The notes under the pieces were generated by a model. That model made no database searches. It saw nothing but the letters and a program-made list of their open reading frames with translations, and was not told where the DNA came from. Shown piece by piece: positions 6,163 to 11,162 of a DNA stretch of 21,025 bases (its first letter is position 1; the number at the start of each line of letters is the position of its first letter). The stretch is from positions 1 to 21,025 of IMG/VR virus record IMGVR_UViG_3300034071_000758. One strand, written 5' to 3'. The position numbers were made by a program, and so were the translations under genes. This DNA is from a virus.

Positions 6163-6531
6163 ATGAAAAACGAAATAGAACAACACATTACAAGATTGAA
6201 TGAATATGAAAATACTTTATTCAGCACAATTTGCCAATATGCAAACATTCAGATTGATGACTTAATAGGTCAAAAAAGAAAAAAAAGATTTGTAGACGCA
6301 AGGAAAGCAACCAGTTTTATCTTGAAACAGAAAGGTTATACACATCAACACATCGGAGAGATTATTAGTTTGATTCCAAAAGACCATACAACTATCATGT
6401 ATCATTTTGAAAAAGCGAAAGCTCACTATGACTTGGAACTTGAATTTAGAAATCTAGTTATTATGGTTAAAAATAAGATGAAAGTATTTGAAGACAAACA
6501 AAAAGAATTATCAAATGCAGAAATTAAATGA
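6163..6531 (+). CDS. DnaA domain IV-like DNA-binding protein
   Basis: A 122-residue protein whose central part (about 35-90) resembles the DnaA-box-binding domain IV: an R/K-rich helix (RKKRFVDARKATSFILKQK), a second helix (HQHIGEIISL) and the signature KDHTTIMYHFEKA (73-85), which corresponds to the RDHTTV motif of DnaA. There is no AAA+ ATPase domain, so it cannot be a full initiator. It may recruit replication factors, act as an origin binder or regulate transcription. It starts two bases after the exonuclease stop and precedes the HTH protein with a 17-base overlap. Confidence 0.7.
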   Translation: MKNEIEQHITRLNEYENTLFSTICQYANIQIDDLIGQKRKKRFVDARKATSFILKQKGYTHQHIGEIISLIPKDHTTIMYHFEKAKAHYDLELEFRNLVIMVKNKMKVFEDKQKELSNAEIK

Positions 6532-8611: not shown

Positions 8612-10906
8612 ATGATTACATTAGACAGATGTTTAAGATTGCTCGAAAGTGGTTTATCACTTGCAACTTTAAGCGAAAACAAACAAGCTAATTTTAGTTG
8701 GAAGCCAAACCAACAAACACCACTATCAAAAGAGGAATTTGCAAAGCGCTATCATTACCAAGGCGGGATCATGCTGAAAAGCGGTGAACAAATGAAAGCG
8801 ACTTCAAACATTGCTTTGATTACAGGTTATAATAACATCGAAGTTATTGACGTAGACTTAAAAGTATTTGCAACTTTACCCGAGCAGACTAACTTTTGGA
8901 ATGAGCTTCATGAATATTTGAAATCAAACATTGATGACTTTGATTTAAAGTTTGTTATTTACAAGACTAAAAACCAAGGTTATCACATTCTTTATAAGTG
9001 CAATACCATTGTAGGTAATTCAAAGATTGCTAAATTGAAAGGACATAAAGAATGCGTAATTGAATCCCGTGGAATAGGCGGTTATGTTGTGGTTTATGAT
9101 AATCAAATTAGTAAATTAGACTATCTTGAAATTAAGGCTATCACAGAACGTGACAGGCAAATCCTTTGGGATATTTGTAAAACGTACAATTATGTTGAAG
9201 AAAGCAAAACGATACAACCTGAAAAGAAAGCAGTTAAAGAGTATGCAGAAAACGAAATCACTCCATGGAAGGACTACAATGATAAAACTGATATCTTTGA
9301 TGTTATTGGTAGTGACTTCAAGATAGTAAAGAAATTAGCAAACCATTATATTATTTTGCGCCATGGAGCTACATCCGTGCAAAGCGGTTACGTTTATCGT
9401 AATTCAAACTGCATGTATTTATTCAGTACAGGAACCATATACCCAAACGAAAAGCTAATAAGCCCTTTTAGTGCGTATGCAATAAAGAATCATAATGGCA
9501 ATTATAAAGAAGCCGCAAAGGATTTATACAATCAAGGATTCGGAAGTCGTATCGTAACTAAAAAGAAAGCTATTGAAGATAAAGAAATAATTAACATCAA
9601 TGCAGACGATTTAAATTTTCCTATCGACATTTTTCCGCAAGACATTCAAGAGTATATGATTGAATGTAACAAAACTTTGGATAGCTCGATTGATTACATG
9701 GGCTGTTCAATGTTATGGCTACTTTCAGTTATTGTAGGTAATTCAATTCAGATTGAAGTTAAGCGTGGATGGTACGAAACTTGCAACGTATGGATTGCCA
9801 TCGTTGGTAAGGCGGGGCTAGGTAAAACTCCAAGTATTAGCAATATTATTTATCCATTGCAGAAAATCAATTCAAAGAGAATTAAAGAATACATCAAACA
9901 ATATGATAAATACGAAGCCTATTCAAAGTTAACCGCTGATGAACAAAAGCAAAAAGAAGAAACAAAGAAGCCTATAAAAAATCAATTCATTGCCAATGAT
10001 ATCACTTTGGAAGCCCTAGTTGATTTACATCAAGAATCAAAGAATGCAGTCGGAGTGTTTAAAGATGAACTTGCTGGATGGTTCAAAGACATGAATAAGT
10101 ATCGAGCGGGATCCGACCTTGAATTTTGGTTAAGCTCGTGGAGTGGTAAGAGTGTAAGCATGAATCGAAAGACCGCAAAATCCTCGTTTGTTGAAAAACC
10201 ATTTATCCCAGTTTTGGGTGGCATTCAACCTGGTATATTAGAACAATCATATACGGCTGAAAACAAAGAGAATGGATTTGTTGACAGGATGTTAGTATCA
10301 ATGCCCGAATTAGAGATTGAAAGCTATAACACCAACGAAATGCACGAAGCGACTTTATTATGGTACGAAACGTTTATAATAGGAATTTATGAGCATGTTA
10401 AATTCACTTTGATTGAATACGACCAAGACGCTGAAATCCTAGTTAAGAATGCTAAAATGGATGCAGAAGCCAAAATCGAGTGGGAAAGAATTTTTAATGA
10501 CATTACCAATGTGCAAAATTCAGACGATGAAAACGAGTATATGAAAAGCATGCTACCAAAACAAAAGAGTTATATCCCTCGATTTGCGCTTTTAATCCAC
10601 ATTTTAGACTACTTCATGGACGTTAAGCACAAAGACCCTTATATAGTGAATAAAGACGCAATTTTGAAGGCTGAAAAGCTATCAAAGTATTTTATCCAAA
10701 TGGCAAAGAAAGTCAAGGTGAATTCAATCGAGCACAAAGAGATTAAGGATGTTATTTACAATGCAAAAAATAAGACGAATAAACAAAAGTTTGAAGATAT
10801 GTACATGTCGAATCCTGAATTAGACAAAAAAAGAGTAGCTGAAATGCTGGGATTGTCACGAACTCAAATTTATAGATATATAGCTGAAATAGAGAAAAAA
10901 GTGTAA
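8612..10906 (+). CDS. Primase-helicase: prim-pol N-terminus with DUF3987 helicase-like domain
   Basis: A 764-residue replication protein. Residues about 20-190 look like a bifunctional primase/polymerase domain: catalytic DVD at 80-82 (VIDVDLK), GYHILYKC (123-130) and ESRGIGGYVVVYD (151-163). Residues about 335-700 match DUF3987, with a Walker-A-like GKAGLGKTPS (399-408) and the motif KDELAGWFKD. The last 30 residues form a helix-turn-helix (RVAEMLGLSRTQIYRYI) that could bind origin DNA. Known proteins of this type prime and unwind phage DNA. Its stop codon lies inside the first repeat of the symmetric array that follows, and its expression is probably governed by the leader at 8521-8606. Confidence 0.83.
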   Translation: MITLDRCLRLLESGLSLATLSENKQANFSWKPNQQTPLSKEEFAKRYHYQGGIMLKSGEQMKATSNIALITGYNNIEVIDVDLKVFATLPEQTNFWNELHEYLKSNIDDFDLKFVIYKTKNQGYHILYKCNTIVGNSKIAKLKGHKECVIESRGIGGYVVVYDNQISKLDYLEIKAITERDRQILWDICKTYNYVEESKTIQPEKKAVKEYAENEITPWKDYNDKTDIFDVIGSDFKIVKKLANHYIILRHGATSVQSGYVYRNSNCMYLFSTGTIYPNEKLISPFSAYAIKNHNGNYKEAAKDLYNQGFGSRIVTKKKAIEDKEIININADDLNFPIDIFPQDIQEYMIECNKTLDSSIDYMGCSMLWLLSVIVGNSIQIEVKRGWYETCNVWIAIVGKAGLGKTPSISNIIYPLQKINSKRIKEYIKQYDKYEAYSKLTADEQKQKEETKKPIKNQFIANDITLEALVDLHQESKNAVGVFKDELAGWFKDMNKYRAGSDLEFWLSSWSGKSVSMNRKTAKSSFVEKPFIPVLGGIQPGILEQSYTAENKENGFVDRMLVSMPELEIESYNTNEMHEATLLWYETFIIGIYEHVKFTLIEYDQDAEILVKNAKMDAEAKIEWERIFNDITNVQNSDDENEYMKSMLPKQKSYIPRFALLIHILDYFMDVKHKDPYIVNKDAILKAEKLSKYFIQMAKKVKVNSIEHKEIKDVIYNAKNKTNKQKFEDMYMSNPELDKKRVAEMLGLSRTQIYRYIAEIEKKV

Positions 10907-11145
10907 CATCGTGTAACGTATAGGTTACACAGACGTTACACACTAAAACGTTGATAATCAACACTTTAAGTAAAAAGCGTGTAACATGTTACACATTCAT
11001 AAAAAAAATAAATGAAAAATAAAATCAGAAATAAAATAAAAATTTTCAAACCGTGTAACATGTTACACAAAAAACTCATAACTCATTGATAATCAATGAA
11101 AATCGTGTAACGTATCGTGTAACGTATTGTGTAACGTAGTGTAAC
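10901..11145 (+). repeat. Mirror-symmetric iteron array, candidate replication origin
   Basis: Twelve GTGTAAC half-sites: forward at 10901, 10911, 10979, 11053, 11105, 11117, 11129 and 11139; reverse (GTTACAC) at 10924, 10935, 10988 and 11062. The inner four make two perfect 16-bp palindromes GTGTAACATGTTACAC (10979-10994 and 11053-11068). Two TTGATAATCAA palindromes (10951-10961 and 11086-11096) flank them at exactly 17 bases on each side. The centre (10995-11052) has only 7 G/C in 58 bases. Outer half-sites are spaced 10-13 bases apart, about one helical turn. Location right after the primase-helicase and the AT-rich core fit an origin; dense operator clustering is the alternative. Confidence 0.75.
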
Positions 11146-11162
11146 ATTTAAAAAAATATAAC

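What the first reader, a model, noticed from the sequence alone, without database searches (positions are those of the whole stretch)
10901..11145. Base-exact mirror-symmetric array of two palindrome families around an A-rich core
Seen: 16-bp palindromes GTGTAACATGTTACAC at 10979-10994 and 11053-11068, and TTGATAATCAA at 10951-10961 and 11086-11096. All four share the same centre of symmetry (11023.5), with exactly 17 bases between the two elements on each side. Eight further GTGTAAC half-sites flank them, four per side, at mirrored positions within one base (10924 and 11117 mirror exactly). Orientation of the two outermost left sites breaks the dyad. The 58-bp core has 7 G/C. This is more ordered than a random operator cluster and looks like an initiator-binding origin with a central unwinding element, possibly of a new type, directly behind a primase-helicase with a C-terminal HTH. 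Known: iterons next to replication genes; inference: origin function and bidirectional symmetry.
Basis: partly seen in the sequence, partly recalled or inferred. Interest (0 to 1): 0.82.

Follow-up and report, generated by a model that had tools for sequence, protein, structure and literature searches.

The report
Mirror-symmetric phage origin beside its initiator
A family of phages that appear to infect Bacteroidota carries, next to the gene for its DNA-copying start enzyme, a mirror-symmetric row of short binding sites that is probably where copying begins; the sites and the enzyme's DNA-reading tip change together and are swapped as one unit, which exposes a natural recognition code.

Summary
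Comparison with relatives shows it is not a coincidence: all 75 analysed have a dense array of 8-19 half-sites beside the same Prim-Pol/DUF3987 primase-helicase gene, usually just downstream, in some clades just upstream. Half-site sequence differs (about 17 types), but the plan recurs: outer cluster, spacer, inner pair, A/T-rich core, inner pair, spacer, outer cluster. Left and right spacers match in length (median difference 2.5-3 bp, about 10.5 when permuted). Base-exact symmetry itself is not conserved.

The reader of the sites is almost certainly the primase-helicase's own C-terminal HTH: of 756 nine-residue windows, the one that best predicts half-site sequence is its recognition helix. 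Phages about 90-98% identical elsewhere differ only from the HTH codons to the end of the array, so the two are exchanged as one cassette.

Best explanation: an iteron replication origin read by a self-loading primase-helicase, working like SaPI Rep or P4 alpha. Replication was not shown, and GC skew is uninformative. DnaA-like and double-HTH proteins are not the readers. Some relatives carry T5orf172 nucleases with the same HTH beside the array, suggesting an origin-targeting arms race.

The parts
8612..10906 (+). Primase-helicase gene: Prim-Pol (aa 10-162), DUF3987 helicase (aa 359-701), C-terminal HTH; proposed initiator that reads the array
   Evidence: Pfam and PHROGs; Foldseek: N-terminus matches pRN1 ORF904 prim-pol, 1rni, E 1.6e-5; covariation
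10778..10900 (+). C-terminal HTH (aa 723-763); recognition helix starts at aa 750 (nt 10859)
   Evidence: AlphaFold2 helices 723-733, 739-746, 750-763; covariation peak at aa 750-758, partial r 0.61
10901..10941 (.). Left outer cluster: four GTGTAAC half-sites (10901+, 10911+, 10924-, 10935-)
10951..10961 (.). Left spacer element TTGATAATCAA, binder unknown
   Evidence: CATTGA-type elements in 32 of 82 spacers of relatives, 1.4 expected
10979..10994 (.). Left inner palindrome GTGTAACATGTTACAC (convergent half-site pair)
   Evidence: inner convergent pairs recur in relatives
10995..11052 (.). 58-bp A/T-rich core, proposed DNA unwinding element
   Evidence: 7 G/C; among the least stable 0.44% of stretches of the record
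11053..11068 (.). Right inner palindrome GTGTAACATGTTACAC
11086..11096 (.). Right spacer element TTGATAATCAA
11105..11145 (.). Right outer cluster: four GTGTAAC half-sites, all on the + strand (11105, 11117, 11129, 11139)
10786..11160 (.). Exchangeable specificity cassette: HTH codons plus array (approximate borders)
   Evidence: DNA identity to L008 falls from about 90% to 40-55% here and returns to about 85% and more after it;

Best explanation
The element is an iteron-type replication origin read by the C-terminal HTH of the primase-helicase encoded beside it. The protein binds the twelve half-sites through this HTH. The two inner pairs, one on each side of the A/T-rich core, would nucleate two protein assemblies, probably two helicase rings facing each other. 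The outer clusters would wrap or load further subunits, helped by a bending protein at the CATTGA/TTGATNATCAA element of each spacer. The core then melts, the rings thread on, and the N-terminal Prim-Pol domain primes synthesis in both directions. HTH and array form one specificity cassette that recombination swaps between phages, so each phage would replicate only from its own origin. Shown here by computation: the array, its constant link to this gene, the conserved mirror layout, HTH-half-site covariation, cassette exchange. Inferred: actual binding, origin activity, double rings, melting, bidirectionality, role of the spacer element.
For: 75 of 75 analysed relatives have an array of 8-19 half-sites beside the gene. 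Half-site sequence follows the recognition helix, not relatedness: partial Mantel 0.473, 0 of 5000 permutations; body given helix 0.074. The helix is the best of 756 windows, 0.61 against 0.304 for the best window before residue 725. Arg750 goes with G in 28 of 28, Leu/Val/Ile with T in 17 of 18, in a frame built from half-sites alone. Cassette swaps between near-identical phages. Mirror-matched spacers. Unstable core. The array stays with the primase gene whether up- or downstream of it. The N-terminus matches pRN1 Prim-Pol. SaPI Rep and Cch2 read iterons directly downstream of their genes with the C-terminal domain (PMC7581432); pRN1 needs the region downstream of its prim-pol-helicase gene (PMC4234260).
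Against: No experiment or read-depth data. GC skew does not turn at the array. The tree-based sign test has too few independent pairs (5 of 6, p 0.0625). One exception to the residue-750 rule, and Lys755 is mixed in the half-site-only frame. The orientation of the near-palindromic GTTTAAAC sites is uncertain. HTH proteins can also act as repressors. Full-length pRN1 protein showed no specific binding to its downstream region (PMC4234260).
Confidence: 0.8

Rival explanations
1. Transcriptional operator: the primase-helicase (or another HTH protein) binds the array to repress or switch a neighbouring operon, with no role as an origin.
For: Short half-sites in inverted pairs next to genes are typical of operators; HTH proteins are often repressors. 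Where the array is upstream of the gene, some arrays lie within 3-210 bp of its start codon.
Against: The array is downstream of the gene in most relatives and the next gene differs between relatives; 8-19 sites with mirrored spacers round an A/T-rich core exceed an operator's needs. Some upstream arrays are separated from the primase by an ORF.
Confidence: 0.1
2. Origin, but read by another phage or host protein: the DnaA-domain-IV protein, the double-HTH protein or host DnaA; the HTH of the primase-helicase only tracks it.
For: A DnaA-IV protein is encoded at 6163-6531 and in 11 of 18 long records, window included; a few arrays of relatives hold a DnaA box.
Against: These genes are not constant (double HTH in 2 of 18). 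DnaA-IV covariation 0.217 against 0.549 for the helix in the same phages. No exact DnaA box in the window's array.
Confidence: 0.05
3. Recombination, partition or packaging site rather than an origin.
For: Multi-site arrays with bending elements also occur at such loci (own knowledge). A resolvase-like nuclease gene follows the array here.
Against: The array is tied to the primase-helicase and its HTH; the terminase-like gene lies about 4.5 kb away, and the nuclease gene is not constant.
Confidence: 0.03

Closest known systems
SaPI Rep / SaPI ori (Ubeda et al. 2007, as described in PMC7581432) and SCCmec Cch2
   Same: Initiator helicase whose C-terminal domain reads multiple short iterons directly downstream of its own gene; two hexamers proposed
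   Different: Other helicase families (DUF927 or D5-type) and no Prim-Pol fusion in SaPIbov1-type Rep; here Prim-Pol plus DUF3987, many half-site classes on one scaffold, mirrored five-part layout, array sometimes upstream
Phage P4 alpha protein and its origin (as described in PMC4234260)
   Same: One protein with primase, helicase and winged-helix origin-binding domain that reads repeats at the origin
   Different: P4 primase is of the bacterial (TOPRIM) type; layout not compared here
Plasmid pRN1 ORF904 and downstream origin (PMC4234260)
   Same: Prim-Pol fold, helicase, C-terminal DNA-binding domain, essential region just downstream of the gene; the paper suggests the same for some phages
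   Different: pRN1 origin is a stem-loop without iterons, with no specific binding found; here an iteron array with reader covariation
PLE RepA/ori and ICP1 Odn (PMC8263062)
   Same: DNA-binding domain and origin covary and are exchanged as a module; a T5orf172 nuclease with an initiator-like DNA-binding domain attacks origins
   Different: RepA_N domain, three ~30-bp iterons and two specificity groups there; short HTH with single-residue switches and many groups here

Membership tests
Self-loading initiator helicase with iteron origin (SaPI Rep kind) | Multiple short iterons next to the initiator helicase gene | tested here: met
   75 of 75 relatives
Self-loading initiator helicase with iteron origin (SaPI Rep kind) | C-terminal domain of the helicase determines iteron specificity | tested here: met
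   By covariation and cassette swaps only, not by binding
Self-loading initiator helicase with iteron origin (SaPI Rep kind) | A/T-rich region that melts next to the iterons | tested here: inconclusive
   A/T-rich, unstable core present; melting not testable
Self-loading initiator helicase with iteron origin (SaPI Rep kind) | Drives replication from the array | not testable with these tools
   No experiment; GC skew uninformative
pRN1-type replicon | Prim-Pol domain of the ORF904 type | tested here: met
   Foldseek 1rni E 1.6e-5, 3m1m E 6.8e-6; Pfam Prim-Pol 7e-5
pRN1-type replicon | Large stem-loop origin without iterons | tested here: not met
   The region is an iteron array; no 100-nt stem-loop among the inverted repeats listed
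P4 alpha family | TOPRIM-type primase domain | tested here: not met
   Primase part is Prim-Pol/AEP
DnaA-box origin | TTATNCACA boxes bound by DnaA | tested here: not met
   No exact box in the window's array, occasional ones in relatives

The most novel reading that the evidence does not exclude
Origin specificity in these phages is a fast-evolving compatibility lock. HTH-plus-array cassettes are swapped and re-coded by single recognition-helix changes under pressure from origin-directed T5orf172-HTH nucleases carried beside the origin by rival phages or as homing genes. The mirror layout stays fixed because it positions two primase-helicase rings head to head on the core.
Probability: 0.35. 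Interest if true: 0.85.

Novelty: new variant of a known kind. Interest (0 to 1): 0.68.

Why it matters
It gives a large natural series (49 non-redundant pairs, about 17 half-site types) in which an initiator's recognition helix and its origin change together on one scaffold. Origin-recognition rules and initiator-origin compatibility can then be tested directly by swapping residues and sites. It extends SaPI-type self-loading initiators to DUF3987 primase-helicases of phages. It also suggests that replication origins are targets in phage-phage conflict.

Tried and rejected
GC-skew turn at the array: none, skew follows gene strand. DnaA-IV or double-HTH proteins as readers: rejected on presence and covariation. 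Base-exact symmetry as a conserved trait: rejected, broken in 99%-identical relatives. Spacer element as an IHF site: WATCAANNNNTTR fits both sides in the window by eye, but many relatives carry other CATTGA-type elements, so left open. Conserved A-on-top-strand polarity of the core: not universal. PDB sequence search with the alignment: no match. DNA-palindrome scan of viral contigs: besides known relatives it brought in L093 and L096, both with a primase and R750/R755 helices that fit the code; L084 has an array at a contig edge without a recognised primase; L085, L086, L087, L089, L092 and L094 look unrelated. A Streptococcus phage Sfi21 origin downstream of its primase gene, remembered, was not found in the library.

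Full report
OBSERVATION. Twelve GTGTAAC sites fall in 245 bp; the whole 21,025-bp record holds 14, against 1.9 expected. Two perfect 16-bp palindromes flank a 58-bp core with 7 G/C, and two TTGATAATCAA elements lie 17 bp further out, all centred on 11023.5. The core is among the least stable 0.44% of stretches of the record. The window is the whole of a virus record that is probably a genome fragment. The only matches in bacterial genome assemblies were four metagenome bins, three of them labelled Bacteroidota.

RELATIVES. The gene in front (8612-10906) encodes Prim-Pol, DUF3987 and a C-terminal HTH. Scans brought in its relatives; 78 distinct ones kept a stop codon and flank and 75 were analysed further. 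All 75 have an array of 8-19 half-sites beside the gene. Most arrays start within a few dozen bases of the stop codon. In some clades the array is missing there and lies just upstream of the gene instead. Across 17 long contigs the primase-linked array is the only dense repeat in 13; four have one more dense repeat elsewhere.

LAYOUT. Half-sites differ between clades (GTGTAACAT, GTGTAACC, GTGTAAACC, GTTTAAAC, GTGTGACAT, GTGCGACAT, TGCAACAT, TATGCAAA, GTGTGCAA, GTGCGCAA, TGTCAAAT, GGTTGAAT, GGTTCAAT, AGTTCACA, GGTTGTT and others). The plan recurs: outer cluster with steps of about 10-13 bp, spacer, inner pair, A/T-rich core (typically 59-65 bp between the flanking site centres), inner pair, spacer, outer cluster. 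Spacer length varies from about 30 to 67 bp, but left and right agree: median difference 2.5 bp in 36 arrays, and 3.0 in 39 arrays against 10.8 when permuted. With only relatives at least 35% diverged (n 12) it is 1.5 against 9.4, P 0.005. So the mirror symmetry is a selected feature, although the base-exact match in the window is not kept even in L003 and L004 (18 versus 17 bp).

READER. Half-site distance correlates with recognition-helix distance after removing body distance (0.473; 0 of 5000 permutations), while body distance adds nothing significant (0.074). Among 756 nine-residue windows the best is 750-758 (0.61); the best window before residue 725 reaches 0.304. AlphaFold2 places the third HTH helix at 750-763. 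In a frame built from half-sites alone, Arg750 goes with G at the third base in 28 of 28 and Leu/Val/Ile with T in 17 of 18; Arg755 goes with C in 9 of 9 and Asn755 with A in 13 of 13, while Lys755 is mixed in that frame. On a tree of the rest of the protein, residue 750 changes 7 times and the base 6 times; 5 of 6 independent pairs go together, too few for significance alone (p 0.0625). Two further members were found by scanning for the palindrome DNA, not by protein (L093, L096), and both carry Arg at 750 and 755.

CASSETTE. Window and L008 are about 88-100% identical per 60 bases along the gene and about 85-100% identical after the array, but only 40-55% identical from the last 60 bases of the gene to about 240 bases after it. 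L024/L027 and L048/L051 show the same, L017/L018 more weakly. L026 and L027 have bodies 99.3% identical, HTH regions 75% identical, and TGCGACA versus TATGCAA arrays. HTH and array therefore travel together.

OTHER PROTEINS. The DnaA-IV protein and the double-HTH protein are not constant companions, and the DnaA-IV protein covaries weakly with the half-sites (0.217 against 0.549). The spacers are enriched for CATTGA (32 of 82, 1.4 expected) across half-site classes, which points to a different, more constant binder, perhaps a host bending protein. That is a guess.

WIDER REACH. Distant DUF3987 genes also have inverted short repeats directly downstream: a human-gut phage (L214, seven TGCAGT/ACTGCA sites), L213, and Streptococcus phage Javan191 with its IMG/VR relatives (TTTTGTCAC repeats, TATATA-rich core, GTGACAAAA). 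L217 and L218 show little or nothing, so the rule is not proven outside the close family.

MECHANISM AND STATUS. The best explanation is an iteron origin read by a self-loading primase-helicase. SaPI Rep is the nearest known kind (PMC7581432). pRN1 shares the Prim-Pol domain and the downstream location, but its origin is a stem-loop (PMC4234260). PLE RepA/ori is a precedent for domain-origin covariation and swapping (PMC8263062). DUF3987 was predicted to be a helicase in mobile-element primases (PMC5862659). Binding, melting, double rings and bidirectional replication are inferred, not shown. GC skew gave no support.

SIDE FINDING. In L060, L031 and L055 a T5orf172 (GIY-YIG superfamily) nuclease lies next to the array and ends in an HTH homologous to that of the primase-helicase, with a different recognition helix from its neighbour's; G013 has a similar protein. 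This resembles ICP1 Odn, an origin-directed nuclease (PMC8263062), and would explain why origin specificity changes so often. It is a hypothesis.

Noticed in passing
L060:2274-2804, L031:2380-2961, L055:5608-6105, G013:C1:26748-27230: T5orf172/GIY-YIG-type nuclease genes directly beside the array, ending in an HTH like that of the primase-helicase but with a different recognition helix; Odn-like candidates (Pfam run on the first three only).
   Followed up: partly
window 6163-6531: Small protein with a DnaA domain IV (Bac_DnaA_C, E 1.6e-10) as its only recognised domain, present in 11 of 18 long records; its site and role are unknown.
   Followed up: partly
window 10951-10961 and 11086-11096, and spacers of relatives: Spacer element (TTGATNATCAA or other CATTGA-type) kept across half-site classes, so probably bound by a different, more constant protein.
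   Followed up: partly
L213, L214, L216 and L219-L225, first 200 bases after the DUF3987 gene: Inverted short repeats directly downstream of distant DUF3987 genes in human-gut and Streptococcus phages, suggesting the arrangement is widespread.
   Followed up: partly
L084:102-522: An array of 16 TGTAAC sites with four copies of the same 16-bp palindrome at a contig edge, without a recognised primase gene on the piece held.
   Followed up: no
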